Part shown: positions 43,828-63,990 of the stretch, one piece after another
Layout of the letters: every line of letters starts with the position of its first letter
Position numbering within the stretch: the first letter of the stretch is position 1
NCBI GenBank assembly: GCA_963682055.1
Contig: OY821749.1
Span: forward strand, 27,659,631-27,723,630
Source of the DNA: Primula veris
Lineage: Eukaryota > Streptophyta > Magnoliopsida > Ericales > Primulaceae
Direction of reading: 5' to 3'
Length of the DNA stretch: 64,000 bases
Program-made: the position numbers and the translations under genes
The notes under the pieces: model-generated
What the model saw: only the letters and a program-made list of their open reading frames with translations
Database searches by the model: none
Told to the model about the DNA's origin: nothing

Positions 43828-43848
43828 GAGATAATTAATGTTTACTAT
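43828..43848 (+). repeat. Left MULE terminal inverted repeat, outer part
   Basis: First 21 bases of the left terminal repeat; continued at 60,224 beyond the retrotransposon. Confidence 0.88.
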
Positions 43849-44418
43849 TGATAGAACATAAAAATCAGACCCGAATATTTTATTCGGGTCATAATCAACC
43901 CACTTTATAAATGGGTATCCAACGCTTAAATGGGCCATCTCATACTTTTTATAGGAATTGAGGTGCTACTACCAAAAGCCCAAGCCCAATCAAAGGGGGA
44001 CCCATGTCTGAAAAATCCCTGGGATGAAGACATTTGTCAATATCCTAGAAGGCGCAGTTGCCTATAAATAGCCAACTACCCCTCCTAGAAAAGGACCCAG
44101 AAAATCTATCCAAAAAATATAGAGAGAAGTTAAGAAAAGAGAGAAACTAACCAAAACATATCACTTCGAGAAATAAACCGAGAAAAGACAGCCGAGCACC
44201 GAATAAAAGAGGAGAAAGATCAAGACGAGAGATTAAATAGTTATATCGAGCATAATTGTAAAACCGAAATACTAGTCCGAGCAAATGTAATAGTCCGAAC
44301 AAGGACAATAATCCGAGCAATAATAAAGATCAGGAAGTATCATTTATTCACGGTTGATTTATCATTATATCATTGTTGAAAAGCCTAACGCGACCGACCA
44401 AAGTTATGGCTTTATCAA
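43849..44418 (+). repeat. 5' LTR of Tat element
   Basis: 570 bp, TGATAG...TATCA. It contains a TATA box and ends two bases before the primer-binding site. Differences from the 3' LTR that I found: g/t near 44,140, g/a near 44,267, g/a near 44,383, and one extra A near 44,401. Confidence 0.96.
44063..44070 (+). promoter_or_regulatory. TATA box of 5' LTR
   Basis: TATAAATA inside a cctataaatagcc context, about 355 bp before the LTR end, in the U3/R position expected for genomic RNA synthesis. Confidence 0.75.
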
Positions 44419-44420
44419 AT

Positions 44421-44438
44421 GGCGCCGTCTCCGGGAAT
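44421..44438 (+). other. Primer-binding site, tRNA-Asp-like
   Basis: tggcgccgtctccgggaa starts two bases after the LTR. It complements the 3' end (ending GGCGCCA) of plant tRNA-Asp with about two or three mismatches, as I recall that tRNA. Confidence 0.72.
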
Positions 44439-44496
44439 CATCTAGTTCCCAACTAGTTTAGAATTCGAATACCAATACTCTGCCAGACGAGCGACA

Positions 44497-47400
44497 ATGG
44501 TTACCAATGTAGAGGAAACCCATCCCGAGATAGTAGACACCAATAACCAAAACACGCAAATTAGCCAACAAGGCCTCGGCGATCTACTCGCTATCCGCGA
44601 CAGATATGAAGCTATCCAATCCGGAAACCAACCAACAACCTCCTACGTCAACCAAGAACAACCGGTCGAACCACCCCGACATTTCATCGAAGGGATTGTC
44701 GACGAACACCTTTCGTCCTCGGAGGACGAACAAGACGTGCCCGTATTAAGGCGTGCACGAAGACGCTTAACCGGGTCCCAAGCAGGGCCGAGCTCAAGAG
44801 TCCCTTTGCCTACGGCCTCGGTCAACTCCGGTGCTCGTTTACAAACGGACGAGGCCCATCAGTTTGGTATGCCCGAGGATCATGTACTCGGACAGTCGCC
44901 CCGACTGCCGACTAATTCTCCGAGGATGATTACACCACCCACGGTGGAGGTACAACATGTCGTTCCATTAGCCGATGAAAGGAACTACACCCAGCTACAA
45001 GCTCAGCTGGCGGCATGCATGACGGCCATGACAGCGGCCGGCATCGTATTGACAGTTATCCAACCCAACAAAGACCCACGCCATGAAGTGGAAGATTCTG
45101 CCTACAGGGCCGCCCTGGAGGCAGCGGGTCGGCGACCCGATACAAGAGTCCCCCACCAAGGGGGCAATGTCCCAGTAACTATCGTCCATCCGAACACTCA
45201 TATGGAACGTGTCCACACAAACACGAAGGACGATAGATATCCCGAATACAGGATCGGGGAGGGATATGGCCCACCACCACATCAGGGAGGATACCCTCCC
45301 CCCTACCAAGTCACGGATGACGCGTTCCAACAGGCTTGGAACGTATGCCAAGAAACCCCGTGTGCTGAACAGATCACGCGGTACCACAATCCTATGGGAT
45401 TCGTCATCCCCGAATTCAGGCTCTATGACGGGAAGAGTTGCCCTATCGACCATCTGAGGCACTACAAGATGAAGATGGAACTGTGGAGTGATGACCATGC
45501 ACTGATGTGCAAATTTTTCAAAAACAGCTTGGGTCAAGAGGCTTCGTCATGGTATCATAACTTACCACGGGGCTCCATTAGAAACTGGGCAGAATTGCTA
45601 AGAGCATACTCCACCCGATACGCTGCTCATCGGAAAAAGAAGGTTAGTATCGAAACCCTTCTTAAAATGACGATGATGCCAAATGAAAGGCTCAACGATT
45701 ACTGCATACATTTTATCGACGTAGCAAACCAGATTCCACGATATGCCAATAATATAGCCATCCAAAACTTTATCAATTCCATCCCTAATGGCTATTGGGC
45801 GAGAAGGAAGTTCATAGGCAAAAACTTCCCGACCACTGATTCCCTGCTAGCCTATTGTACCCACCTCACCGATAAAAACGACGAACTGCGTTTCCTCAAC
45901 CGAACTCTACCGAGAAGAGAGTCGGTCCGCGAGGCACAGGTGGGTCGCAAAAGAGTTAGAAATAACCAGGGAGAAGCATTCCAACCGACCAGAAAGGGCA
46001 AAGAGCCCGAGGTCCATAGCAGGGGAGAGCGACCACGAGCACTAGAGCCCAAACCGCTCCAGATCGCATATCCAACACCGACCAACGAACATAAACCGCT
46101 CCAGCTCGCCTACTCGATGCCACCCAAGCCATTTCAACAGTTTCGGCCCCAAGAGAGGGAACACCGAAACACTTTCGGACCGGTCGAGCTGCGATACACT
46201 TTCAACTTGTCTGCTGAAGATATCCTCAAGGATATATGCAGGGAAAGTTGGTATTCCCGACCACAACCGATCATCTCTCCCCCCAATCAGAGAGATTCCA
46301 AGCTCTTCTGCGCATATCACGAGGATCACGGCCATCTCACTGAGCATTGCCGTAACCTGCGATGGAGAATGAACCAGTGGGGCGATGCAGGATACCTAGC
46401 CAAGTTCATCAAAGGAGCTGGGAATAAAGGCAAACAATTGGCCATCGAGGGATCTGACAACCGGCAAGGCAAAACGATCAACGTCGTTCATATGTCACGA
46501 CCCAAGGGCCCAGGCGGGGAACGATCACGACAATGGCAGCTGGCCCACTTTGGCCAAGTAGCCAAGACATCACAGGCGTCGACCTCTAAACGACAATGCA
46601 CACCACGACGACATCCGCCCATTTCTTTCTCGGATCTTGACGAAGAAGGGGTGATTTACCCCCACGGAGACGCCATTAACCTCCGTGTTCAAATCGGCCT
46701 AGACACAGTCAGCAGGGTACTTGTCGACCAAGGAGCCTCTTGTGATATCATGTACAAGGAGCTCTTCGACAAGATGGAACTCAAGCTGCAAGATCTACAG
46801 CCTACCGATGTCACACTGATCGGATTCATCTCCGAAACGACCAAACCGTTGGGTAAGATCGTCCTCAGTGTCACAACAGGGTCCATGTCGGTTCCCGTGG
46901 AGTTCTTAGTGGTCGACGACCACTCCGGTCATAACGCAATATTGGGCCGACCTTGGTTACATGCCATGAAGGCCATACCCTCGACCTATCACCAAAAGGT
47001 CAAATACCCAAATGATAGGGGAGCGATCGAGACAGCCAGAGGATGTCAAGAAGATTCAAGACGCTGCGAAGACATCACCGCGACTCTCCAAAAACAACGA
47101 AGCACTGTGGAACAACCCACCAGCACAAAGAAGCTGATCAACCAAATATCCAAAGCTGAAAGGGTTGTCGAAGAACAAGTAGGAGAGACACTCAGGAAGG
47201 TGTATATACCAGATATGGACGAGGAGCATTACTTCCTCCTCGGCGACAACCTTCCAAAACAGGAATCCGAGGAGTTGAAAGCGTTCCTCCTCAACAACAC
47301 TGATAAATTCGCCTGGAGTCCTAAAGACATGCCGGGCCTAGACCCCAATACAGCATGCCACCACCTAAGTGTAAACGCCGAGTACAAGCCAATAGCACAG

Positions 47401-50400
47401 AGGAGCAGGAAAGTCTCCGTACAGCACAGAGCAGCTATAATCGCTGAAGTACAAAAGCTATTGGAGGCTGGAGCCATAAGGGAGGTTTACTATCCAAAAT
47501 GGTTGTCCAAACCGGTCGTCGTCCCTAAGAAGAACGGGAAGGAAAGAGTCTGTATAGACTTCACCAACCTCAACAAAGCCTGCCCGAGGGACCACTTTCC
47601 CCTTCCAAGGATCGATCAACTGGTGGACGCAACAGCGGGAGCAGAACGGATGACCTTCCTTGATGCGTACTCAGGATACCATCAAATTCCCCTCGCCCGC
47701 GAAGATCAAGAAAAGACTTCATTCATATCGCCTTTGGGAAATTATTGCTATACGGTAATGCCGTTCGGCCTACGCAATGCGGGAGCAACCTACCAAAGGA
47801 TGATAACAAGAGTATGTCGAGATCATATAGGGAAGACGATGGAGGTATACATAGACGACATGGTCATCAAAAGCGAAAGAGCCACGTCCCACCTTCAAGA
47901 TATCAGGGACGTTTTCCGAACGCTGGGCGAGCACAAACTGAAACTCAATGCGAGCAAGTGTGCATTTGGCATCAGCAAAGGGAAATTCTTGGGACATATG
48001 GTTAGCCGACGAGGAATAGAGGCTAATCCTGATCAAATAACGGCTCTACGAAACCTAGCAGCTCCCAAGAATAAGAAACAGGTACAAGAGCTCACGGGAA
48101 TGATGGCCGCGCTGAGCAGGTTCATTAGCCGATCCGCAGATAAGGGACGGCCATTTTTCGAATCACTCAAGAAGGATAGAAAATTCGTCTGGGACCCGGA
48201 ATGTGAAGCTTCATTCAACAATCTCAAAGAGTACTTGAGGACATTGCCACTGCTAGTAAGGCCGAACAGAGGAGACATTCTGGCATGCTACCTAGCAGTC
48301 TCCGCTACAGCTGTGAGCGCGGTCATCCTAAGAGAAGAAGGTCGCGAACAATTTCCGATCTACTTCGTCAGCAAGACTCTGGTCGAAGCCGAAACACGTT
48401 ATCTACCCTTGGAAAAGCTGTGCCTGGCATTGGTCGTCGCAACCAGGAAGTTGCCACACTATTTCATAGCTCATCAGGTCCGGGTATATACAAAATTTCA
48501 TATTAAAGAGTCACTTCGACGGACGGACATTAGCGGCCGAGTTGCCGCCTGGGGGGTCGAGCTATCCCAATTTCATATCGAGTTCGCACCCCGCCATGCC
48601 ATAAAGGGACAAGTCCTGGCCGATTTCGTCGCCGAATTCACCGAAGGCTATGACGAGCCTTTGGCACTCTCTCCACAATCACACTGGCAGATACATGTCG
48701 ACGGATCAGCCACCAAGGACGGATCAGGAGCAGGGATCGTTCTAAGGTCTAGAGAGGGAGCAATCATCGAAAAAAGCATAAAACTGGGCTTCCGAGCTAC
48801 CAACAATGAGGCAGAATACGAGGCCATGATAAATGGCATGTTTATTGCCCGGTCCCTCGGATGCTCCCACTTAATTGCAAGCTCAGACTCCATGCTCATC
48901 GTCAATCAAGCCACCGGCGAGTACCAAGCGAAAGATGATAGAATGATCCTCTACCAAGAAAAAGTCCAAAGCTTGATGGCCACCTTCGAACAGTGCGAGT
49001 TAGTAAGAATCAATCGCACCGAGAATGCACATGCTGATGCATTGGCCACCCTAGCCTCGACATTAACATTGACCGACACCCGGTCGATCACAGTGGAACT
49101 ACTGTCGACCCCGAGCATAATAAAAAGGGTAAACCGGGTGACATCGATACAGTACGAACTAGGTTGGATGGAGGACATGACCCATTATCTGCGAAGTGGA
49201 ACGCTTCCGGTCGACAAGATAAAAGCGCTGAAAATTACAAGAAAAGCTCCTCGCTTCTGGCTATCCGAGGACGATAAACTATACAAATCCAGTTACCGGG
49301 GACCACATCTACTGTGCGTCCCGACTGAGCTACAACTGCCGGTCTTGGAGGAAATCCACGAAGGATTTTACGGGGCACACATCAAAGGGCGATCCCTTGC
49401 AAACAAGGCAGTGACCCAAGGATATTGGTGGCCCTATATCAAGCGAGACGCCGATGCATACGTCCAACGATGCGACAAGTGCCAACGATTCGCCAAGATA
49501 CCACGGCTCCCTTCATCTATGATGACCCCGGTATCAGCACCATGGCCGTTCGCTCAATGGGTAATCGATTTGGTCGGTAAACTCCCAAGAGCACCTGGGA
49601 ATGTGGAATATCTGATCGTTGCGACTGATTATTTCACCAAATGGGTCGAAGCTAAATCCCTCCGAGAAATCAAAGTCAGCAACGTCAAACAATTCATTTG
49701 GGAATACATCATAACTAGGTTCGGTATACCGTACGCTATAGTCGCCGACAACGGAACCCAGTTCAAAGATGCCAATTTACAGCTGTGGTACGAGGAACTC
49801 GGTATCCGAAAATTCTATTCGACGCCGACATACCCACAAGGGAACGGGCAAGCCGAAGTGTCAAACCGAACAATATTAGACGGCATCAAGACCACCCTTG
49901 AACAAGCAAAGGGGAGGTGGCCCGAGCGGCTACTCAACGTTTTATGGTCGTGCCAAACTACACCCAAGACGGGCACCAAGGAAACCCCGTTTAGCTTAGC
50001 ATACGGTGTTGAGGCCGTCATACCGACAGAGATCGGGCTACCTACGCTCCGAACAACGTTGGTCGAGCAGGGAAATAATGAACAAAGAATGAGAGAAGAG
50101 CTCGACATGATAGACGAGAAACGAGAGATAGCGGCCCTTACCTTAGCTAAGTACCAACAAAGCGTAAAGCAAACCTATGACAAGAGAGTAAAAGGATCTA
50201 AAGAATTCATGGTAGGAGAACTGGTGCTGCGACGAGTGACGGTCTATACCCGCAACGAAATACATGGCAAACTGAGCCCTACCTGGGAAGGCCCATACGA
50301 AATCGTCAAGCGAACAAGTCCAGTCTCTTACAAAATCAAAAGCGTCCTGTTCGCCAACAGCCGAGGGGAAAAGAATTCTTGGAATGTGGCTAACCTAAAG

Positions 50401-50415
50401 AAGTACTACGTATAG
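44497..50415 (+). CDS. gag-pol: Gag-Pol polyprotein of Tat-lineage retrotransposon (1972 aa)
   Basis: One uninterrupted frame that starts 78 bases after the LTR. Order of domains: variable N-terminus (1-290); gag capsid-like domain (about 300-455); a CX2HX4HX4C zinc motif (C605, H608, H613, C618); aspartic protease with D744 in a VDQGAS motif; reverse transcriptase (about 1000-1180) with LDAYSGYH (D1056) and YIDD (1118-1121); a degenerate Ty3 RNase H (about 1260-1380); a second archaeal-type RNase H with D1402, E1438, D1464 and D1514; integrase with a zinc-binding CDKC region and D1691, D1751, E1787 (DD35E spacing); and a GPY-type end (SPTWEGPYEI). There is no chromodomain. It would copy the element through RNA in cytoplasmic particles and insert the cDNA. 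Gag and Pol are fused without a stop or frameshift. Confidence 0.96.
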   Translation: MVTNVEETHPEIVDTNNQNTQISQQGLGDLLAIRDRYEAIQSGNQPTTSYVNQEQPVEPPRHFIEGIVDEHLSSSEDEQDVPVLRRARRRLTGSQAGPSSRVPLPTASVNSGARLQTDEAHQFGMPEDHVLGQSPRLPTNSPRMITPPTVEVQHVVPLADERNYTQLQAQLAACMTAMTAAGIVLTVIQPNKDPRHEVEDSAYRAALEAAGRRPDTRVPHQGGNVPVTIVHPNTHMERVHTNTKDDRYPEYRIGEGYGPPPHQGGYPPPYQVTDDAFQQAWNVCQETPCAEQITRYHNPMGFVIPEFRLYDGKSCPIDHLRHYKMKMELWSDDHALMCKFFKNSLGQEASSWYHNLPRGSIRNWAELLRAYSTRYAAHRKKKVSIETLLKMTMMPNERLNDYCIHFIDVANQIPRYANNIAIQNFINSIPNGYWARRKFIGKNFPTTDSLLAYCTHLTDKNDELRFLNRTLPRRESVREAQVGRKRVRNNQGEAFQPTRKGKEPEVHSRGERPRALEPKPLQIAYPTPTNEHKPLQLAYSMPPKPFQQFRPQEREHRNTFGPVELRYTFNLSAEDILKDICRESWYSRPQPIISPPNQRDSKLFCAYHEDHGHLTEHCRNLRWRMNQWGDAGYLAKFIKGAGNKGKQLAIEGSDNRQGKTINVVHMSRPKGPGGERSRQWQLAHFGQVAKTSQASTSKRQCTPRRHPPISFSDLDEEGVIYPHGDAINLRVQIGLDTVSRVLVDQGASCDIMYKELFDKMELKLQDLQPTDVTLIGFISETTKPLGKIVLSVTTGSMSVPVEFLVVDDHSGHNAILGRPWLHAMKAIPSTYHQKVKYPNDRGAIETARGCQEDSRRCEDITATLQKQRSTVEQPTSTKKLINQISKAERVVEEQVGETLRKVYIPDMDEEHYFLLGDNLPKQESEELKAFLLNNTDKFAWSPKDMPGLDPNTACHHLSVNAEYKPIAQRSRKVSVQHRAAIIAEVQKLLEAGAIREVYYPKWLSKPVVVPKKNGKERVCIDFTNLNKACPRDHFPLPRIDQLVDATAGAERMTFLDAYSGYHQIPLAREDQEKTSFISPLGNYCYTVMPFGLRNAGATYQRMITRVCRDHIGKTMEVYIDDMVIKSERATSHLQDIRDVFRTLGEHKLKLNASKCAFGISKGKFLGHMVSRRGIEANPDQITALRNLAAPKNKKQVQELTGMMAALSRFISRSADKGRPFFESLKKDRKFVWDPECEASFNNLKEYLRTLPLLVRPNRGDILACYLAVSATAVSAVILREEGREQFPIYFVSKTLVEAETRYLPLEKLCLALVVATRKLPHYFIAHQVRVYTKFHIKESLRRTDISGRVAAWGVELSQFHIEFAPRHAIKGQVLADFVAEFTEGYDEPLALSPQSHWQIHVDGSATKDGSGAGIVLRSREGAIIEKSIKLGFRATNNEAEYEAMINGMFIARSLGCSHLIASSDSMLIVNQATGEYQAKDDRMILYQEKVQSLMATFEQCELVRINRTENAHADALATLASTLTLTDTRSITVELLSTPSIIKRVNRVTSIQYELGWMEDMTHYLRSGTLPVDKIKALKITRKAPRFWLSEDDKLYKSSYRGPHLLCVPTELQLPVLEEIHEGFYGAHIKGRSLANKAVTQGYWWPYIKRDADAYVQRCDKCQRFAKIPRLPSSMMTPVSAPWPFAQWVIDLVGKLPRAPGNVEYLIVATDYFTKWVEAKSLREIKVSNVKQFIWEYIITRFGIPYAIVADNGTQFKDANLQLWYEELGIRKFYSTPTYPQGNGQAEVSNRTILDGIKTTLEQAKGRWPERLLNVLWSCQTTPKTGTKETPFSLAYGVEAVIPTEIGLPTLRTTLVEQGNNEQRMREELDMIDEKREIAALTLAKYQQSVKQTYDKRVKGSKEFMVGELVLRRVTVYTRNEIHGKLSPTWEGPYEIVKRTSPVSYKIKSVLFANSRGEKNSWNVANLKKYYV

Positions 50416-50518
50416 GCAATGCTCCGAATACAAGTACAGGTGCTACCTTACCCTTCTTGCTTAATGGCATTATCTTTCTTCTTTTGAATGAATAAAATAT
50501 ATTATTATGCTGTCTACT

Positions 50519-51222
50519 AATACTATGAGATTCTCAACTTGGCCGAAGTGCCTAGAAATACTATGAAATTCCGTAAATGGCGTGTTACCAAAGGAACGTC
50601 TAGGAATACTATGAGATTCTCAACATGGCCGAAGTGCCTAGAAATACTATGAAATCCCGTAAATGGCGTGTTACCGAAGGAACGTCTAGGGATACTATGA
50701 AATTCCCAACATGGCCGAAGTGCCTAGGAATACTACGAAATTCCGTAAATGGCGTGTTACCGAAGGAACGTCTAGGAATACTATGAGATTCTCAACATGG
50801 CCGAAGTGCCTAGAAATACTATGAAATTCCGTAAATGGCGTGTTACCAAAGGAACGTCTAGGAATACTATGAGATTCTCAACATGGCCGAAGTGCCTAGA
50901 AATACTATGAAATTCCGTAAATGGCGTGTTACCAAAGGAACGTCTAGGAATACTATGAGATTCTCAACATGGCCGAAATGCCTAGAAATACTATGAAATC
51001 CCGTAAATGGCGTGTTACCGAAGGAACGTCTGGGGATACTATGAAATTCCCAACATGGCCGAAGTGCCTAGGAATACTATGAAATTCCGTAAATGGCGTG
51101 TTACCGAAGGAACGTCTAGGAATACTATGAAATTCCCAACATGGCCGAAGTGCCTAGGAATACTATGAAATTCCCAACATGGCGTGTTACCGAAGGAACG
51201 CCTAGGAATACTATGAAATTTA
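50519..51222 (+). repeat. ~86 bp tandem repeat after pol (about 8 units)
   Basis: About eight units that alternate a ggccgaagtgcctaggaata half and a gtaaatggcgtgttaccgaa half. The halves share the aatactatgaaatt core, so the unit looks like a diverged dimer of a ~43 bp repeat. Tandem repeats in this position are known for Tat-lineage elements and can seed satellite DNA. Confidence 0.93.
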
Positions 51223-51514
51223 TATGCAGGTACAATGCAAGGAATTATTCAGGTCCACATTACGACGGCGATGCAATATAAATTGGCTAAAACAATGAAG
51301 GAGAATCAATCTAAACAACAAAATATCAACAAGAAGCATCTCCAAAACAGGAATAACGAAATAACAAATGATTTAGCAAGGAAAAATCGATCCAATCAAT
51401 TAAATAGCAATACGGCAATGGAAAGGTACAAAACAGGAATAAAGAAATAACATATATAGTCCTCGCCTGCATTACGGAGGCAACAAGAAGATCAACGACA
51501 CTAAAGAGATTCAT

Positions 51515-52236
51515 TTAAGAAGAGCTACTGCAGGAGGAGCACGACGGTAATTGACCGAGCTCAATCTCTTCGTCATCCGTCGTTGTGTACCCATCAGACT
51601 CATCACCATCAAAACGCTCCTCAGAAATGAGGGCATCAAAATTGGTCGTATGAGCCCCAACACAAGTCAGCGTCTGAAGCCGCGCGTTGAACTCGGCTTC
51701 TTTGGCGAACTCGTGAGCATCCGAGGCCGCTTTACGGCGATCATCGTCAAAGGAGAGGTCACGGCGAGCTTCAATCACAGCTGCGGAAGCATCGTATCTG
51801 GCGCGGGACAAACGGAAATACTTCACCAACACGTTGGCCTTGGTCACAAGCAACTTTAATTTGCCGAAGTACTCGCCCTTTGCACGCCAATATCGATCCA
51901 AACGACGCTCCTGAACCTCAACAGCATGCTCGGCACGGCGAACGTATTCTCGAAAAGAGGCCGCCTGGGTTTTCAGCTTGGTCCGCAGTCGAGCACATTG
52001 GTCGGTCAATTTGACATTTTTGCTCATCAAAACAATGTAGGGCCACCTGTCAGGCACCTCACTAGCCGCACCAGATGAGACCTCGTCCCGGGCAGCACCA
52101 GTAGGTCCTAACCCCGGGTTAACTAGGCATGGAGAACCAGCCTGGTGCGACATAGTAGCATGTGCCTATAAAAAAAAAAGAGGGGGGGGAGACGAACGAG
52201 AAGAGATGAATAAATAAAAAATAAATAAAAAAATAA

Positions 52237-52273
<37 letters not shown>

Positions 52274-54710
52274 ATGCTAGAAAGATAGTCAAGGTTCCAC
52301 CTGAGGAGATGTCGGTGGGGGAACAACAGTAGCATCCGGTCGAGGAGTGGATGGGGTCGACATAGAGTGAGGACGCAGCGCTGTCGAAATTGTCTGCCCC
52401 GGTAGCCGAGGAAGCTCTTCTTCACGAAGATTCGCCCAGTCCAAGGGTTTCGGCGGTGCACCATGCTGACACGGATACACCAACTCCGACCACGCCCTAT
52501 CCGACAGAGGAACATTCGCGAAATTGAGCGCCCGCACATGAGCGCAGTATACAGCGAAGTTGGCCATCATCGCTAACTTTTTCCGCTCCTCCGCCTGTGC
52601 CGTTTTCAGGGCAGACACCTTAGCCTTTTCGGCTTCCACGTCCTCAGCCAGGAGCAAGTTCTCCTCCTTTAGTTCGCCGTACTTAGCGGCCATGCTCTCT
52701 TTTTCCACCCTCAATTTCTCGACATCCTCGGTCAGGTGCAGGAAGTCCACCGACAGTTTGTCATAATTCTCGCCCAGGGTTTTCTTCTCGGCGACCAATT
52801 TCTCCTTCTCGGCCACCAGCTTCTCTTTCTCAGCCCCTAGAGCTCCCAGCTGATCCCGTAGCGCCACGGTACTCACAGCAATCTGCACTTCAACACATTA
52901 GTTTCCAAATAAAATACAAGTACCAAACCTATATAGTGAAATACGAGCCCCACATACCCTCAGCGCATCCGCGTGGGCCTGCTCTATAACCGACATTGTA
53001 GGTTGGGCAGATAGTCTTTCTGCATTCTTGAACACAAGGGGTTTCAGAGCCGTATACCCCATCTTCAACGTTCTCGGTTGATCCAGCAGTTCACCCCTAC
53101 ATCGGTCAATGTACCGGGTCATTGCAACCCCGTCAACCAACCCCTTCTCGGATCCGTCGAGAGCCTCATCCTCGACACCCGTCACAGCATCCCCGGCATT
53201 CTCTTCGCTGCCTTCCATTTCCACCCCCACGTCCTCCTCCAACTGCTCAATCTCAGGGGCCCTATGCTCGATCTCTTCCTCAGTACGGAGGGGCGAGCAA
53301 ACGGGCAAATCTATCGGACCCTCGGTGGGGATAGGCGAGATGACAGGCAAAGTCATCGTACCCTCTCCCATGTTCGTCAAGAGGTTCATATATCCGAATA
53401 CATCGTCGATCGACCCCTGAAACACAATAATACCCATAGACCGGGCAAGAGCGAGGGTAACCAATGGAGAAGTCAGTAGCTGAAACAAGATGACTAATAA
53501 AGCAAAGCACTAGCGAACCAAATGACAAACAACCAAAAGACAAGAAAATCATAATACATATACACATACCTCGCCCGGAGCAGAGGCATCCTCGGCGGTA
53601 TCCCCTTGAGCAGCAGCAAACACCCCCTCGCCCGAGCCAACGTTAGCATCTTCCTCGGTAACCGATGTATCGGTTCCCCTAGCCCTCTTCGTTGTTTCAA
53701 CGACAGGGTCAGATGCACGACGCTTAGAACGAACGGCTCTCTTTCCAAGCCGAGTAGCACATCGAGCCTGGACCACCTTTAAGAATTCCTCCTCGGGCTC
53801 TTTGGGGATCTCGGGTGCAGGATTCCCCCTGGTCACCGACCCCATAGGGTAACCGAGCAACATGGGAGCCGTACGACTCGCAGGATCCGGCGTAGGTCCA
53901 GGCCCCCACCATTTCCAAAGAGATAACAGAGCCTCTACATTGGGCGCGCCGAGGTCTGGCATGATGGGAGCATTGGTCGCCGGTCCAGGAATCTGGTGTC
54001 CCGCACAACCCCATGCACCGGAAGCAATTACAATACCAAGATTACGCTCTTTGTTGGTATCCGGCAAACCGATAACGAGCCGGCAAAAGGCACGCAGAGT
54101 CTTCAAATACGAGCTGCGACGCTCAAAGCTCATACTATAGACTCCAAAGACGTCCTTTAGTTCAATCGGTATTCCGGACAACTCCGATAGCCTTTGGATA
54201 CCATTCAGAGTACGGTAACCATTTAGGGCCAGTTGGGCCGGAGCAATTTGGACGGCCTCAAAGAACGAAGCCACCCAGTTTGTAAAGGGCAGTCGAAGAC
54301 CCCCAATGAAGAATGTCGAAGAGCGCACGGCCACCTCACCGGCAGGTACAAATCCCAGCACCTCCTCGTCAGAAATAGGAAGCCGGATATGTATGTTGTC
54401 AGGTATTCCGGCAAGCTCCTTAAAATCCTTTTCCACGAATGTGCCAACTTGGGCCACACTTTGGGTCAAATTTTCCTATACAAAAATCATCAAAAATCCA
54501 TCAATATACTAACCAAATACACAAACCAGAACCACATCAATAGAACGAGAGCCACCACCCCCCCCCCACGCACATTACATCAGAATCATCAGACATATAT
54601 AGATAACCTGAACCATGTACCAACGACACACCTATGACCACAACGACAAATCAAATACAACTCCTAAAAGAGGGAAGGGGGGAGAACGAAAAATCACTTA
54701 CAGTAATCAT
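51515..54710 (-). CDS. Antisense spliced gene in Tat element (predicted ~889 aa; PF04195-like domain plus coiled coils)
   Basis: I infer five exons: 54710-54702 (codes MIT, donor gtaagt), 54475-53570, 53479-52958 (or from 53416), 52882-52301, and 52165-51515 with the stop. Every intron is GT-AG in phase 0 and every coding exon is a multiple of three, which is unlikely by chance. Exon 2 has GLRLPFTNWVASFFEA and IAPAQLALNGYRTL, as in the Pfam 'putative gypsy type transposon' family (PF04195, Transposase_28), then a basic RSKRRAS stretch that may be a nuclear signal. Exon 4 is a strong coiled coil (repeated EKEKLVA). Exon 5 is another charged helix ending in an acidic, Ser/Cys-rich tail. Function unknown; additional ORFs of this kind occur in Tat/Retand elements. 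The weakest splice site is the exon 4 donor (CAG|gtggaa); if it is not used, the frame stops 12 bases later. No long frame on the plus strand competes convincingly. Confidence 0.7.
52219..52268. repeat. AT/AAAT microsatellite in antisense-gene intron
   Basis: aaat repeats followed by about 34 bases of TA repeat, inside the last intron of the antisense gene. Confidence 0.9.
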
Positions 54711-55410
54711 TATGAGTAAGCAAGCGCGAACAGCAGCAAGTCTTCCAACACAACCACGAAACCCTAGATTAAGCGGCCGAACTCTTTTCCTTTTTGGCGG
54801 GAAAAATATGCTTTAGAGAGAGAGAGATATTTTCTTCAGCAAATTCTGTGATAAAAATAAACAGGATTACTTGGCATAATAGAAAGGAGTGGAGTCACAA
54901 AAGGAATAAAATAATAACCGTCCTTTCGTGTAACAGAGGTTTACCTTTTTCCAACCATACAAAAGTCAACAACCGCTGCTCTTTTTAACATATAAACGCT
55001 CCAGATTTCGCCACGTCAGCGCGTATCCCACTACCCAAGGCAGTTCACATCATTAGACCTAAATAAACGGCCAGTGGACCCTACCACGAAAAGCTTCCCA
55101 CATACGCTACCACTACTATCACACCGAGAATATCCCCTGATTAAAGTTCCTCGACTCCCAACCAATCCTTACCCAAAGGGCACACCGAACAAGGTGGACG
55201 AAGACCGTTCCTAGCTTGATGGCAGGGAGCATCAAGTCTAACAACGCTCTCCGGGGGGATAACCGGGCATATTGTTCGGTGTATGCTCAGAAACATAAAA
55301 GAGAAGCAAACAGGAAATAAAATAGGACAGAATCAAGTGCAAGACAAGTTTTATTCATCCACAAAGGGGGAAACACAAACAATACAACAGAAAAAGAAAA
55401 TACACCCATC
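54711..55410. other. Region upstream of the antisense spliced gene
   Basis: On the minus strand this is the probable promoter and 5' UTR of the spliced gene. A ctagggtttcg word typical of plant leaders lies about 45-60 bases before the ATG, and a weak TTTATATG lies near 54,995. The rest separates it from the next small antisense ORF. No plus-strand gene. Confidence 0.45.
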
Positions 55411-55773
55411 CTACTTTTTTGAACTATCCCCCATAGCAACATCCCTCTTCGCCAAAAGCTCCTCCAGACGCTCCTTCTCCTTAACCAAACGAGAAATCGC
55501 CATCTCAGCCTGTTTCAAGGCGTAAGACTGAGACTCGCATTTTTGCTCGGCCTTGAAACGAGCAGTGCCCTCATCGTCCCAATATTGTTTAAACCTCCTC
55601 GCTTCAGTCCGAGCACACATGAGATCATGTTTCAGCCATGACATCTCAATTTCTTTTAGTTGAAGAGGAGTCAAATTCTCCTCCCCAAAGCCAGGGGGAC
55701 GAGGTAGCAAAAAGGTAGGCTCCTCTTCCATAAGGGCTTTCTTTTTGGAGGCAGACCTAGTGATGGGAGCCAT
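55411..55773 (-). CDS. Small antisense coiled-coil ORF 1 (120 aa)
   Basis: Begins MAPITRSASKKKALMEEEP. I preferred this ATG over an earlier in-frame one because it lies about 70 bases after a TATAAATG box (55,843-55,850) and follows a T/A-rich leader. Residues about 50-115 form a charged amphipathic helix (REXXRFKQYW, then a KEKERLEELLAKRD end). No catalytic motif is visible. It belongs to a run of five similar small minus-strand ORFs between pol and the 3' LTR. I do not recognise a family. Confidence 0.55.
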   Translation of the reverse strand: MAPITRSASKKKALMEEEPTFLLPRPPGFGEENLTPLQLKEIEMSWLKHDLMCARTEARRFKQYWDDEGTARFKAEQKCESQSYALKQAEMAISRLVKEKERLEELLAKRDVAMGDSSKK

Positions 55774-55842
55774 CTCACGCAAAAGCAAATTATAAAACAA
55801 GAGAGAGGTAGAAATTGGTAATGAGATGCAGGCAATAGGGAG

Positions 55843-55850
55843 CATTTATA
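55843..55850 (-). promoter_or_regulatory. TATA-like box of small antisense ORF 1
   Basis: TATAAATG on the minus strand, about 70 bp before the chosen ATG. Confidence 0.45.
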
Positions 55851-55993
55851 GAGAATCAAAAGGCACAAAGTACGAAGCGTTACAATGGTTCACAAGACAG
55901 GCACGAGACACGAAAAGATACAACTGATTCATCAAATACAGAAGATAAAACACAAATGGCAAAAGGGGAAATACAAAAGAAAACCAGCCCAAT

Positions 55994-56473
55994 CTAAGGA
56001 TCAATGGGTGGAAAAACCGAACTGCCAGACCGAGAGAAAGCAAAACGAGCAGAACAATTCAACCGAGCTTGGTAGGAATCGTTCATGGCGACCAAATCGT
56101 CATTCTCCGAGGAGAGCCTGTTGTTTTCCATAGTAAGAACCCTGACGCGATCCACGAGCCGAGCATTCTTTACCATTATGCTAGCTAGGCCTTGAGGAGA
56201 GTTGTCAAACTCATCTTGAGAATGGTCCCAAATTTCCTCGGCATCATACCAGGAGTTGGCCAGATGGTTTCTCTGTAGCAACAAGTGATCGAGCTGGCGA
56301 CTCAGTGCCGAGATCTCGGTCCACTTCACCGTCTCTTCGGGATAAGAGCCGAACAAGCTCAAGGCCAAAACGCCATACTCTTTCTCAAGCCTTGCCATCC
56401 GACGGCGGACCCGAGATACCTCAGAGTCCAAGCCCTTCATTTGAGCATGATATCTCACCACATGTCCAGACAT
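55994..56473 (-). CDS. Small antisense coiled-coil ORF 2 (159 aa)
   Basis: Begins MSGHVVRYHAQMKG. Two helical segments (about 12-35 and 105-135, with LTMENNRLSSENDDL) flank a Trp-containing middle (NSWYDAEEIWDHSQDEF). A TATAAGTA box lies about 100 bases upstream (56,571-56,580). It shares its MSG start and leader style with ORF 3. No known domain. The frame is open for its whole length with the normal ATG. Confidence 0.55.
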   Translation of the reverse strand: MSGHVVRYHAQMKGLDSEVSRVRRRMARLEKEYGVLALSLFGSYPEETVKWTEISALSRQLDHLLLQRNHLANSWYDAEEIWDHSQDEFDNSPQGLASIMVKNARLVDRVRVLTMENNRLSSENDDLVAMNDSYQARLNCSARFAFSRSGSSVFPPIDP

Positions 56474-56570
56474 TCTAGGAAATTGTTTAGTACGGAAGAA
56501 AATAAAGGGCTGAGGAAGAGAGAAGCAAAAAGAAAAAAAAGAGATGATAGACTACCAAAGAAAAGAGAAG

Positions 56571-56580
56571 TACTTATAGA
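56571..56580 (-). promoter_or_regulatory. TATA-like box of small antisense ORF 2
   Basis: TCTATAAGTA on the minus strand, about 100 bp before the ATG. Confidence 0.4.
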
Positions 56581-56889
56581 ACGGAGAATATGATATTTTA
56601 TGACCTTGCTTGGGAAATTGCATATTTCCTGACATGATTGGAGGCATGCACATTTCCTGATCTACTAGGGAGCATGCACATATGTTTGACAGTGATGGGG
56701 ACATCTACTGACATCTGAGACTACAGTGCAGAAGAAATAAAGACGAGATATTCAAAGATCTAGATTCCAGACAAACAACAAACCACAGGTACAATATAAA
56801 AAGAAATGCAAAAATAAAAGGGCAAAAATACTTTTCATTAATGAAGATGGAATACATCATTGTTCATTACATCAAAAGACAAAATTACA

Positions 56890-56996
56890 TCGAGGTCTGT
56901 TACATCAAGGTCTATTACATCCGAAAAGAAAACCTATTACATCCGAAAAGATCTATTACATCCGAAAAGATCTATTACATCCGAGAAGAGCTAGTA
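56890..56996. repeat. ~20 bp tandem repeat, tctattacatccgaaaaga type
   Basis: About five units, with small variants, in the 3' region of small antisense ORF 3. Confidence 0.88.
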
Positions 56997-57029
56997 CAGA
57001 AGATCAGGCAAAGGATCAACTATATCAGC

Positions 57030-57530
57030 TGACCAAGTGAGCAGGAGACGCCAAAAAGAAAAAGTAAGAAGAAAGAGAAAGGAAAAGCAAGAAAAGGAAA
57101 AGAAGAAGAGTGCAAGAAAAGAAGTGATAAGAAAGAAGAGCCAAAAAGAAAAATGACCAAACCTAAATGTAACACAAAACCCTTTGGATCACAGGGCTGA
57201 TTGTTACATCGTAGTGGTGCAAAAAAGTGATGGGAGAGAAGATGAAGAAAAAGAAAGAGGAGGCACAGAAGAAAAACAGATGAGAAGAAGATAAAGAGGT
57301 GAAGGAGACAGACAACTAAAAAGGAAGTCAATGAAACAAAAAAGAAACGGAAAAAGAAAAGAATAAAAAGTACGAGAAAACAGAGTATAAAAAAAAACAC
57401 AAGAGAGGAAGAGGAAGAAATGATGGAAACGGAGAAATAAAAAAAAGAAGAAAAAGGAAGAGATGGGAAAAGATGGGGAAAGAGCAGAGAAAAAGAAAAA
57501 AAGAAGGGGGAAGGTTAGGGGGAAGTCGAT
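57030..57530 (+). repeat. Long purine-rich tract
   Basis: About 500 bases that are mostly A and G on the plus strand (gaaaaagaaaagaa-type sequence), interrupted only near 57,160-57,230. On the minus strand it is pyrimidine-rich and sits 3' of small antisense ORF 3. The Phe/Leu/Ser-rich open frames across it reflect composition. Confidence 0.85.
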
Positions 57531-57808
57531 CGGTATCGATGAGAGGGCCCGGCAGAGACATCCCTGTCCCTCAGTGTCGGGTTCCCCCTTAGCATCTCAT
57601 TCTCTTCGACTAGAGCCTGACGAGCACGTCGGCAGTAAGCCAGTTCGGATCTTAGCCAAGTTAATTCCCGAACCATCTCGGTATGGTGATAACGCATCAC
57701 CTTCAATTCCTCCTTGGCATCCCTCAACAGCCTTTGTACATGGTTATAGGAGGCTTCAAAGGCCTCCACTTGCAAAGCTAATGCTGATTGGGTGAAAGGA
57801 CCAGACAT
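57515..57808 (-). CDS. Small antisense coiled-coil ORF 3 (97 aa)
   Basis: Begins MSGPFTQSALALQVEAFEAS. Residues about 12-75 form one long charged helix (VQRLLRDAKEELKVMRYHH, then RQALVEENEML), followed by a Ser/Arg-rich tail. I chose the ATG beside the MSG start because TATA-like sequence lies upstream at 57,893-57,900 (and TATATAGA at about 57,833). A longer frame with an earlier ATG at 57,880 is possible but would start close to the TATA box. No known family. Confidence 0.52.
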   Translation of the reverse strand: MSGPFTQSALALQVEAFEASYNHVQRLLRDAKEELKVMRYHHTEMVRELTWLRSELAYCRRARQALVEENEMLRGNPTLRDRDVSAGPSHRYRSTSP

Positions 57809-57892
57809 CTTAGGGAAATTATAAGATGAGGGTCTATATATGGGGGAAAATAATATGATGAGAAGTGTGGATGTAACCATGCTGTAAGCAGC

Positions 57893-57900
57893 TATTTATA
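57893..57900 (-). promoter_or_regulatory. TATA-like box of small antisense ORF 3
   Basis: TATAAATA on the minus strand, about 85 bp before the chosen ATG. Confidence 0.45.
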
Positions 57901-58376
57901 GATCAATTAGATGAGGGCTGGGATTGAGAGTCGCAACCATTCGCCAATGGGTATTCAGAAGCGATGGCACTCAAAAGAGGTGACTGTTCAAGAAAAACGT
58001 TTGGATTCCCAAAAGACTCTAAAGAGCGTGAGTAATTAAAAGCCTCTCCTGTTCAAGAAACGTTTGGATTCTTACCAATATTTAAAGGGGGTAAGTAATA
58101 ATGGCAGCAAAACACGCGTCATTTTTGGGAAGAGCAGCGGTTCAAATAAATATCCCAGATCTTTTGCGCAAGACTCAAGAAAACTCTGGTGAATAAGATT
58201 TTCTATGCACAAGGCTCAAGAAATCCTATTAGTCCCTAGATATAAAAAGTAAGAAGGTCCAATGGATAAGATCAAACACAAGGCCCAAGAAAAGCATTAA
58301 TGAGGCCACAAGCGTGCGCAGTCAAAATAAATTGCATTGGGAAAGTAATTCAGATATAAACAAGAAAAGGAAATCT
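57901..58376. other. Spacer between small antisense ORFs 3 and 4
   Basis: No gene. Contains a short imperfect duplication of the gttcaagaaanacgtttgga word (about 57,988 and 58,050). Confidence 0.5.
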
Positions 58377-58781
58377 TTATTGATTGGTTGATACTTCGTT
58401 ACAGAAGAAGCACAAAGAGGAAATACAATGAAAACAATAAAATCGTTTCATAGAAGGGCCCGCTTCGTCATTCGGCTTCCTTTTCGACCGAGCATACACT
58501 TCCTTAAGGGCCAATTTGTAAGCCCTCTTGGAAGCAAGCTGCCTATCTCTGGAGGCCTCGAGCTCTTTGATCCGGGCACGAGCACGAATACTGTCGAGCA
58601 AAGACCTCTGGTGCTCCTTCTCTAGGGCATCCAATCGTTCGTCTAGTTCGGCGGCCCGACGAGCTTCTACCGACAGCCGGGCAACCCTCTTCTCGAGATA
58701 ACGCACCTTCTGAACTTCCTCCTCCAGACGGGCAACGTATTCAGGAAGGTTGTCACCATATTTTTCAAGAGGAGAAGCCAT
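58377..58781 (-). CDS. Small antisense coiled-coil ORF 4 (134 aa)
   Basis: Begins MASPLEKYGDNLPEYVARLE. One long coiled coil covers about residues 13-95 (EEEVQKVRYLEKRVARLS, then LDERLDALEKEHQRS). The C-terminal part KRAYKLALKEVYARSKRKPN is shared with ORF 5, so the two are duplicates. A TATAAAA box lies at 58,832-58,838, about 55 bases upstream. The last ~24 residues are Cys/Phe-rich and unlike ORF 5; the original stop may have been lost. Function unknown. Confidence 0.57.
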   Translation of the reverse strand: MASPLEKYGDNLPEYVARLEEEVQKVRYLEKRVARLSVEARRAAELDERLDALEKEHQRSLLDSIRARARIKELEASRDRQLASKRAYKLALKEVYARSKRKPNDEAGPSMKRFYCFHCISSLCFFCNEVSTNQ

Positions 58782-58831
58782 TTGTTCGTTAATAAAGAAT
58801 GAACTGCATAAAAAATACTGGGACAGCCCCC

Positions 58832-58838
58832 TTTTATA
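58832..58838 (-). promoter_or_regulatory. TATA-like box of small antisense ORF 4
   Basis: TATAAAA on the minus strand, about 55 bp before the ATG. Confidence 0.5.
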
Positions 58839-59084
58839 AGAAGAAACAAGGAGTAGATCAAAGGTCATCTCGAATAAATACAACCTCTTGAACTTCCCAA
58901 GAGCATTAAAGGCGAATTAACCACAGTTCCAAATCCAATTAAAGTCATCCAAAAAGACATCAAGAAGATAAACAGACAAGAACAAGGAAAGGGAAATATT
59001 TTATTAATTCCAAAAACTTCGATTACAACTGAGGAGAAGACTCCCCATTCAAGAGAAATTACGACAGAAATTACAAAAGACTAA

Positions 59085-59405
59085 TTATTTCGATGAAGAG
59101 CCTTCTTCATCGTCATCCGAACTCGGTTTGGACCGAGCATGCAACTCCTTGAAGGCAAGCTTATAGGCCCTTTTTGCTGCCTTCTGCTTAGCCAGATTAG
59201 CCTCGAGCTTCTTTATATGCTCATAGGCCCAATCCCGATCGGCCATCGTCACATGATGATCAGAATCCATGTCAGACAACATTTTCTTGTAGTTTGAAAC
59301 CTTGGCCACGAGTTTCTTATTCGCGGTACGAGATTTCTTGATTTCCGTTTCTAAATATGAAATATAATTAAAGGAGCTCTCACCAGTAGAACCAGAAGAA
59401 GCCAT
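59085..59405 (-). CDS. Small antisense coiled-coil ORF 5 (106 aa)
   Basis: Begins MASSGSTGESSFNYISYLE. A helix over about residues 18-90 ends in KRAYKLAFKELHARSKPSSD, closely matching ORF 4, then an acidic DDDEEGSSSK tail. A TATAAA box lies at 59,460-59,465, about 55 bases upstream, and the ORF is only 245 bases from the 3' LTR. Its 3' flank resembles that of ORF 4 (aaggaaa...ttatt...ttcgattaca pattern), so whole transcription units were duplicated. Function unknown. Confidence 0.57.
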   Translation of the reverse strand: MASSGSTGESSFNYISYLETEIKKSRTANKKLVAKVSNYKKMLSDMDSDHHVTMADRDWAYEHIKKLEANLAKQKAAKRAYKLAFKELHARSKPSSDDDEEGSSSK

Positions 59406-59459
59406 TATGTCACGGGCAAATTAGTAGTAAAATGCCTAATTATGGAGGGAGCACACCCC

Positions 59460-59465
59460 TTTATA
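59460..59465 (-). promoter_or_regulatory. TATA-like box of small antisense ORF 5
   Basis: TATAAA on the minus strand, about 55 bp before the ATG. Confidence 0.5.
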
Positions 59466-59630
59466 GGAGTTTTCCTCGAAAAAAGATATTAGGATAGGAA
59501 ACATTAAATGTGCCCCCCCTGGGAACCGTCACGAGTCTATTGCGTTTCTCGATGAAGCATTGGGAAAAACAAGACCAAAGTAACGTTCTCGACAAACCGA
59601 ACATGACTCCCCCGACATGGAAACCACGCC

Positions 59631-59649
59631 GAGGAAGTCAGGGAGCACT
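59631..59649 (+). other. Probable polypurine tract
   Basis: gaggaagtcagggagcact directly before the 3' LTR; purine-rich but with a few pyrimidines. This position primes plus-strand DNA synthesis in LTR elements. Confidence 0.5.
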
Positions 59650-60218
59650 TGATAGAACATAAAAATCAGACCCGAATATTTTATTCGGGTCATAATCAAC
59701 CCACTTTATAAATGGGTATCCAACGCTTAAATGGGCCATCTCATACTTTTTATAGGAATTGAGGTGCTACTACCAAAAGCCCAAGCCCAATCAAAGGGGG
59801 ACCCATGTCTGAAAAATCCCTGGGATGAAGACATTTGTCAATATCCTAGAAGGCGCAGTTGCCTATAAATAGCCAACTACCCCTCCTAGAAAAGGACCCA
59901 GAAAATCTATCCAAAAAATATAGAGAGAAGTTAAGAAAATAGAGAAACTAACCAAAACATATCACTTCGAGAAATAAACCGAGAAAAGACAGCCGAGCAC
60001 CGAATAAAAGAGGAGAAAGATCAAGACGAGAGATTAAATAGTTATATCGAGCATAATTGTAAAACCGAAATACTAATCCGAGCAAATGTAATAGTCCGAA
60101 CAAGGACAATAATCCGAGCAATAATAAAGATCAGGAAGTATCATTTATTCACGGTTGATTTATCATTATATCATTGTTGAAAAACCTAACGCGACCGACC
60201 AAAGTTATGGCTTTATCA
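59650..60218 (+). repeat. 3' LTR of Tat element
   Basis: 569 bp, same ends as the 5' LTR and about 99% identical to it. TATAAATA at 59,864-59,871. Followed by the ACTAT target copy. Confidence 0.96.
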
Positions 60219-60223
60219 ACTAT

Positions 60224-63457: not shown

Positions 63458-63990
63458 TTACCACTCATTTACGAACTTCAAAGGTACTCTACTTCTCTTC
63501 TCGTACCAATCAACAATCATTTTAGCATCCACTTCAACTATAATCTCATTTAAACTCATAGTATAGCACAAATTTAAACCATATAGAAGTGATTTAATTT
63601 CAGCTTCTAAGGAGCATTCTGCTTCAAGAAACACGCTAAAAGCAATGATCATTTTAGCACTTTCCTCTCTAATAATTCCTCCCCCGCCTGCTTTGCTTGT
63701 TCTTTTATCAAAAAAACCATCAACATTTAACTTTAATCTTTCACTGGGTGGTTTAAGCCACCTTAGAAGGATAGACTTTTTAACATAGCAGGGGCTTGGT
63801 TTTATTTTAAGAAACTCCATAGTTAACTTTTATGTCATTGTAAGTTTTCTTTTTGGCTTTATAATGAGATTTAAATCTTGCAACCAGCTCATAATCTTCT
63901 TTTTCAAGTCTTCAATATTCATATCTTCATCTTCATACTTATATCTTGTTTTACTTAGCTATATTTCCCAAATAACAAAAAAAAAAGGTA
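63458..63990 (-). pseudogene. LINE-type RNase H (RVT_3) fragment
   Basis: A 120-residue minus-strand frame (63,820-63,458) has RLKLNVDGFFDKRTSKAGGG, an EAE segment and IVEVDAKMIVDWY. This is the pattern of the RNase H domain at the end of plant LINE ORF2 proteins and related host RVT_3 proteins (acidic residues in NVDG, EAEIKSL and VDAKMI). Upstream another frame reads MSWLQDLNLIIKPKRKL before a stop, so a frameshift separates it from the preceding LINE segment. It stops before the usual end of the domain and continues toward the right edge. A decayed LINE is the best reading; a small host RNase H-like gene is possible. Confidence 0.65.

What the first reader, a model, noticed from the sequence alone, without database searches (positions are those of the whole stretch)
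55411..59405. Five tandem small antisense coiled-coil genes, each with its own TATA box
Between the spliced gene and the 3' LTR lie five minus-strand ORFs of 97-159 residues. Each starts 55-100 bases after a TATA-like box, each is dominated by charged helix, and spacing is regular. ORFs 4 and 5 share a KRAYKLA-x-KE-x2-ARSK end and similar 3' flanks; ORFs 2 and 3 share an MSG start. This looks like a gene family amplified inside a retrotransposon. I know of no described element with such a cluster. The products could co-assemble with each other or with the coiled coils of the large antisense protein.
Basis: partly seen in the sequence, partly recalled or inferred. Interest (0 to 1): 0.88.

Follow-up and report, generated by a model that had tools for sequence, protein, structure and literature searches.

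The report
Five conserved antisense genes in retrotransposon
A plant retrotransposon carries five small genes on its reverse strand, each behind its own conserved TATA box and each showing the sequence signature of a protein kept by selection; the proteins likely work together as accessory regulators of the element, and the published surveys I could read set length limits that would pass over genes this short.

Summary
In a 16.4-kb Ty3/gypsy (Tat/Retand-type) element, five minus-strand ORFs lie between a TRP28-type antisense gene and the 3' LTR. All 32 other copies fetched over this region from the same genome, six of them diverged (59-93% protein identity), carry all five in the same order and strand. 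Against diverged copies dN/dS is 0.13-0.38 (dS 0.13-0.97), near the TRP28 gene (0.11-0.15). Indels avoid the ORFs. In the window each ORF starts at the first ATG about 30 bp past a TATA box; the boxes are conserved in the copies checked. So these are five real, probably separately promoted antisense genes. The 'amplified family' reading is only partly right: ORFs 4 and 5 are paralogs (E 7e-22); ORFs 1-3 show no detectable relation. Spacing is not regular; the shared MSG start is mostly not kept. Heptad periodicity is clear for ORFs 3 and 4, weaker for 5, not shown for 1 and 2. The window's own ORF 4 runs past its relatives' stop. Antisense ORFs are a known Retand trait, but the two surveys read required 200-250 codons. 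Transcription, function and presence in other plants are untested.

The parts
43849..44417 (+). 5' LTR (TG...CA), 569 bp; target-site duplication ACTAT at 43844-43848
   Evidence: 3 differences to the 3' LTR; ACTAT on both flanks
44497..50415 (+). gag-pol in one ORF, 1972 aa; RT, RNase H, a second RNase H (RVT_3) before integrase
   Evidence: Pfam hits
50426..51327 (+). 86-bp tandem array, 8 copies in register, just after pol
51515..54475 (-). large antisense gene, open stretches separated by probable introns; exon about 54475-53560 carries a weak Transposase_28 (TRP28) match
   Evidence: 17.1 bits, cut-off 26.2; 74-78% aa identity and dN/dS 0.11-0.15 to two diverged copies; introns inferred
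55411..55773 (-). antisense gene p1, 120 aa (MAPITRS...)
55845..55850 (-). TATA box of p1 (TATAAA), 77 bp before ATG
   Evidence: identical in 21 of 21 close sequences (window included), present in all 6 diverged copies
55350..55355 (-). AATAAA after p1, 56 bp past the stop
   Evidence: (20 of 21; one has no letters there)
55994..56473 (-). antisense gene p2, 159 aa (MSGHVV...SVFPPIDP)
56573..56578 (-). TATA box of p2 (TATAAG; TATAAA in diverged copies), 105 bp before ATG
   Evidence: (21 of 21)
57515..57808 (-). antisense gene p3, 97 aa (MSGPFT...)
57895..57900 (-). TATA box of p3 (TATAAA), 92 bp before ATG
   Evidence: (21 of 21)
56750..56850 (-). conserved block inside an otherwise poorly conserved spacer; probable 3' end of the p3 transcript (AATGAAA)
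   Evidence: identity 0.81-0.84 to three diverged copies, against 0.43-0.69 in the 100-base steps on either side; role inferred
58377..58781 (-). antisense gene p4 (MASPLEK...); 134 aa in the window, 112 aa in relatives
58833..58838 (-). TATA box of p4 (TATAAA), 57 bp before ATG
   Evidence: (the aligned part covers the second half of the box)
59085..59405 (-). antisense gene p5, 106 aa (MASSGST...); paralog of p4
59460..59465 (-). TATA box of p5 (TATAAA), 60 bp before ATG
   Evidence: (TATAAA in 21 of 21)
59000..59005 (-). AATAAA after p5, 80 bp past the stop
   Evidence: 21 of 21; 6 of 6 sequences
58376..58381 (-). AATAAA after p4, about 60 bp past the stop used by relatives (at the very end of the window's longer frame)
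   Evidence: 21 of 21; varies in diverged copies
59650..60218 (+). 3' LTR; target-site duplication ACTAT at 60219-60223

Best explanation
The five ORFs are separate antisense protein-coding genes of a Retand-type LTR retrotransposon, each predicted to be transcribed by RNA polymerase II from its own TATA promoter, and their small helical proteins likely act together with the element's TRP28-type protein as nuclear accessory regulators of the element. Shown: the ORFs, their conserved order, purifying selection on their amino-acid sequences, conserved TATA boxes, the first ATG past each box being the ORF start in the window, AATAAA signals after three of them, and the p4/p5 duplication. Predicted: helical structure, and coiled-coil pairing for p3, p4 and probably p5. 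Inferred: transcription and translation independent of the LTR promoter. Most speculative: the proteins oligomerise and help TRP28 hold the element's DNA in an expressible state, against silencing, much as VANC proteins do for VANDAL transposons.
For: 32 of 32 other copies fetched over the region hold the five ORFs in the same order and strand: 20 chosen by p4, 6 by p2, 4 by a diverged p2 and 2 by TRP28 alone (109/111). In 27 close sequences (window included) the frame is intact in p1 23, p2 22, p3 22, p4 24, p5 26. Changes shared by at least 4 of them are 13 replacement to 27 silent (omega 0.14) in the true frame, against 35/5 in each of the other two minus frames; rare changes are 144/110 (omega 0.38) (Fisher p 0.006 for shared against rare and 8e-7 against frame 1). 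Indel runs in 21 sequences: 4 in 1797 coding bases, 100 in 2692 non-coding. Window against diverged copies: dN/dS 0.13-0.32 (dS 0.13-0.90; one p3 pair saturated) and 0.14-0.38; yardsticks TRP28 0.11-0.15 (two loci), RT 0.04 (one locus). TATA boxes conserved. p4, as P0001, is modelled as one helix, pLDDT 88.5. Antisense Grande gene 23 has its own promoter and a nuclear product, as told in PMC7264820.
Against: No transcript, protein or localisation data. p1-p3 match no family and show no relation to each other or to p4, so a shared complex is a guess. Heptad periodicity is not significant for p1 and marginal for p2. 13 of the 27 close sequences have at least one of the five broken, as expected of dead insertions but also compatible with some genes being dispensable. 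One plus-strand frame also shows a low omega for shared changes (16/24, 0.22); its third positions coincide with those of the true frame and it is closed in all copies, so I discount it. No end signal was found for p2. The window's TRP28 match is under the family cut-off. Nothing here tests regulation or anti-silencing.
Confidence: 0.6

Rival explanations
1. The region makes regulatory antisense RNA (double-stranded RNA feeding small-RNA silencing or its control) and the ORFs are incidental.
For: PMC7264820 discusses an RNA role for antisense transcripts of elements. The TATA boxes are conserved whatever the product.
Against: Selection acts on amino acids: omega 0.14 for shared changes in the true frame, dN/dS 0.13-0.38 at dS up to 0.97, indels rare in the ORFs.
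Confidence: 0.06
2. The five proteins serve in particle assembly or nuclear import of the element's DNA (retrovirus-like accessory functions) rather than in gene regulation.
For: Small charged helical proteins under selection, present in all 32 copies fetched; PMC7264820 names nuclear entry among possible roles of antisense proteins.
Against: Separate antisense promoters would make them apart from gag-pol, which fits an early regulatory role better (inference); no domain match either way.
Confidence: 0.27
3. The ORFs are exons of one or two spliced antisense genes.
For: The neighbouring TRP28 gene looks spliced.
Against: Each ORF has its own TATA box, an ATG start and its own stop; p2 frames are closed just before the ATG in many copies (open frames of 162-163 for 159 aa); AATAAA follows three of the stops within 100 bp, for p4 counted from the relatives' stop.
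Confidence: 0.04
4. Neutral leftovers: chance open frames in a GC-richer element with a strand-biased composition.
For: The plus strand is rich in A here, so the minus strand has fewer purine-rich stop codons.
Against: Rejected.
Confidence: 0.01

Closest known systems
Retand-lineage antisense ORFs (TRP28/Transposase_28 proteins), Vicient 2025, PMC11963269 (parts 1-3 of 5 of the text read)
   Different: That survey counted ORFs of at least 600 bp (plus shorter TRP28 ones) and gives pol-3'LTR regions of 2.9-6.6 kb; here it is 9.2 kb, with five further genes of 97-159 aa upstream of the TRP28 gene on the same strand.
Maize Grande gene 23 (as described in the review PMC7264820, parts 1-2 of 3 read)
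   Same: Antisense accessory gene between pol and 3' LTR, transcribed from its own promoter; product nuclear.
   Different: One gene is described there; six antisense genes here, five of them small and without known domain.
VANC anti-silencing proteins of VANDAL transposons (PMC10398659, passages read)
   Same: Element-encoded proteins whose targets are non-coding tandem repeats of the same element; the present element also has a tandem array.
   Different: VANDALs are DNA transposons (recalled); no sequence relation was tested or claimed. A functional analogy only.
HTLV antisense protein HBZ (as mentioned in PMC11963269)
   Same: Antisense retroelement gene with a nuclear product; its leucine zipper is recalled, from no call.
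   Different: One gene, retrovirus of people; no sequence relation shown (p2 has only a sub-threshold bZIP match over its zipper part).

Membership tests
Ty3/gypsy Tat clade (Ogre/Retand) | additional RNase H between the RT-linked RNase H and integrase | tested here: met
   RT 1009-1168, RNase H 1232-1359, RVT_3 1401-1519, integrase zinc domain 1608-1665; definition from PMC6317226 (passages)
Retand lineage | antisense TRP28 (PF04195) protein between pol and 3' LTR | tested here: inconclusive
   window exon 17.1 bits, cut-off 26.2. L065, with the same five genes, lies beside a 27.4-bit match, over the cut-off
Retand lineage | RT clusters with Retand RTs in a tree | not tested
   no tree was made
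Retand lineage | pol-3'LTR region within the surveyed 2.9-6.6 kb | tested here: not met
   9.2 kb here; a size range in PMC11963269, not a strict definition
   only p4/p5; six other profile pairs below 3% probability; p5 against p1-p3 by single sequences only
coiled-coil proteins | heptad periodicity beyond shuffles | tested here: inconclusive
   p4 0, p3 2, p5 18, p2 34, p1 69 of 500 shuffles reach the observed value
bZIP transcription factors (p2) | basic region plus leucine zipper over the Pfam cut-off | tested here: not met
   17.2 and 14.2 bits against 27.6, zipper part only
VANC-like anti-silencing (function) | loss of silencing marks on own copies when expressed | not testable with these tools
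   needs plants

The most novel reading that the evidence does not exclude
This is an LTR retrotransposon with a lentivirus-like complement of accessory genes carried on the opposite strand: five small, separately promoted proteins plus a TRP28 DNA-binding partner that together form a coiled-coil nuclear machine keeping the element expressed against host silencing, an apparatus not described in LTR retrotransposons.
Probability: 0.3. Interest if true: 0.88.

Novelty: new variant of a known kind. Interest (0 to 1): 0.7.

Why it matters
Plant LTR retrotransposons are usually described as gag-pol elements with one or a few extra ORFs of unknown function. Here five antisense genes below the length limits of the surveys I read (250 codons in PMC6317226, 600 bp in PMC11963269) stand beside the TRP28-type gene and are kept by purifying selection in high-copy families: two p2 searches of one genome gave 300 scored matches, the number being capped. 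If the block exists in other plants, the accessory gene content of these elements has been underestimated, and the open question of what the antisense genes do becomes testable with small, separately expressible proteins.

Tried and rejected
Chance ORFs: rejected. Neutral leftovers: rejected. All five as one family: rejected beyond p4/p5. Similarity of the small proteins to the coiled-coil parts of the large antisense protein: weak only (best z 2.7, p 0.018, uncorrected for 10 such pairs). Known domains: none over cut-off; PDB sequences: one meaningless hit for the p2 profile, the only profile tried. Relatives in the large protein collection: five sequences in three searches, four near-identical to copies here and one 79% p2 relative, without a useful name; p3 was not searched there, and how well plants are covered is unknown, so this says nothing about other species. 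Literature: eight searches answered, seven on this question and one on VANC; none listed a comparable cluster, but only open-access papers are held and supplements could not be read. A 2011 paper on extra ORFs by Steinbauerova and others, cited in these papers, was not read. Not done: RT tree, host identification, search of other plant genomes, structure comparison (fold search). Intactness figures are biased upward: 20 copies come from rows 2-90 of the 150 top p4 hits, 6 from top p2 hits. Rows left out: L058 p1 was dropped (frame broken); pairs of the window with the close copy L055 are not in the quoted dN/dS range.
Full report
The element. It holds an LTR element at 43849-60218: two 569-bp LTRs with 3 differences, flanked by the duplication ACTAT. 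One sense ORF of 1972 aa encodes gag-pol, with a second RNase H between RNase H and integrase, the arrangement of Ogre and Retand elements (PMC6317226, passages). An 86-bp tandem array follows pol. On the minus strand lies a large, probably spliced gene with a weak TRP28 match, and beyond it the five small ORFs of the finding.

The ORFs are real. I took 26 close copies: 20 from rows 2-90 of the 150-row p4 hit list, 6 from p2 hits without a listed p4 hit. All 26 carry the five ORFs in order. With the window, the frames are intact in 23, 22, 22, 24 and 26 of 27 for p1-p5 (the window is one of the three not intact for p4); 14 of 27 have all five intact. No other reading frame over the same intervals is open, except one plus frame over p2 in 4 of 27. 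Changes shared by at least four sequences are 13 replacement to 27 silent in the true frame, against 35/5 in each of the other minus frames; rare changes are 144/110 (Fisher 0.006 for shared against rare). One plus frame also has a low omega (16/24, 0.22), as expected where its third positions coincide with those of the true frame; it is closed in all 27 over all five intervals. In 21 sequences indel runs number 4 in 1797 coding bases and 100 in 2692 non-coding, or 19 in 1651 without the low-complexity spacer.

Deeper conservation. A 79% relative of p2 from public data (P0004) led to a diverged subfamily in the same genome (150 scored hits at 86-94% to it, of 1439 candidates). Four of its loci were fetched; all four hold p1-p5 in order at 59-93% aa identity to the window. 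Two further loci were chosen by the TRP28 domain alone, without regard to the small ORFs; both hold all five. dN/dS of the window against diverged copies is 0.13-0.32 (dS 0.13-0.90; p3 of L060 saturated, L058 p1 left out as broken) and 0.14-0.38 (dS 0.21-0.97). TRP28 gives 0.11-0.15 at two loci and an RT piece 0.04 at one; the other RT locus gave no match. Broken cases: L057 p4 and L065 p2 have a stop, L058 p1 a stop and a frame change, L060 p1 lacks its start codon, and the end of L065 p4 differs.

Promoters and ends. In the window each ATG is the first one more than about 30 bp past a TATA box; this was not tested copy by copy. The boxes are kept in the 21 close sequences (for p4 the aligned part covers only the second half of the box) and recognisable in all six diverged copies. 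On the minus strand of 55.1-59.65 kb there are three AATAAA: 56 bp after the p1 stop, 80 bp after the p5 stop, and about 60 bp after the stop that relatives use for p4. Those of p1 and p5 persist in the six sequences; that of p4 varies. A conserved island at 56.75-56.85 kb inside the otherwise poorly conserved spacer is probably the end of the p3 transcript (inferred). I found no clear end signal for p2.

Relations and structure. p4 and p5 are paralogs over their whole length (z 19.5; hhalign E 7e-22). The pairs p3-p1, p3-p2, p4-p3, p4-p1, p2-p1 and p2-p4 gave at most 2.7% probability; p5 against p1-p3 was tested by single sequences only. p4, as P0001, is predicted as one helix (residues 4-100, pLDDT 88.5), p2 as three helices with moderate confidence (pLDDT 71). 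The L065 copy of p2 lacks exactly seven residues, the length of one heptad, in its zipper-like part. No Pfam family reaches its cut-off.

Reading. Function is inferred. Grande gene 23 is an antisense accessory gene with its own promoter and a nuclear product, as told in PMC7264820 (parts 1-2 of 3 read). TRP28 is predicted to bind DNA (PMC11963269). Element-encoded proteins of VANDAL transposons bind the elements' own non-coding tandem repeats and undo silencing (PMC10398659, passages). Together with the tandem array here, this makes a nuclear regulatory complex my first choice, at moderate confidence; particle or import functions are the main rival.

Known or new. [quoted passage not shown] The two surveys I could read counted ORFs of at least 250 codons (PMC6317226) or 600 bp (PMC11963269), which would pass over genes of 97-159 codons. 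I found no description of such a block in seven answered searches of an open-access library. I therefore call it a new variant of a known kind.

Noticed in passing
2200-41150, minus strand: Six tandem copies of a stretch with cytochrome P450 ORFs (300-nt pieces 74-100% alike; three of the ORFs matched PF00067), with arrays of about 163-bp repeats beside several of them.
   Followed up: partly
L058 (G000:C7:17199076-17203952): Mosaic copy: about 86% DNA identity to the window over p3-p5 and LTR but 78% over p1-p2, pointing to recombination between subfamilies.
   Followed up: no
L065:1413-1868: A p2 copy that lacks exactly seven residues, the length of one heptad, in the zipper-like part.
   Followed up: no
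63458-63820, minus strand: RVT_3-type RNase H fragment, probably of another retroelement.
   Followed up: no
G000: At least 11 of 73 TRP28 matches lie 1.8-2.3 kb from a listed p2 match (picked by eye, distances), so the two genes travel together; the lists are truncated.
   Followed up: partly
56474-57514: A 1-kb pyrimidine-rich (minus strand) spacer between p2 and p3 with very many indels among copies (81 of the 100 non-coding indel runs).
   Followed up: no
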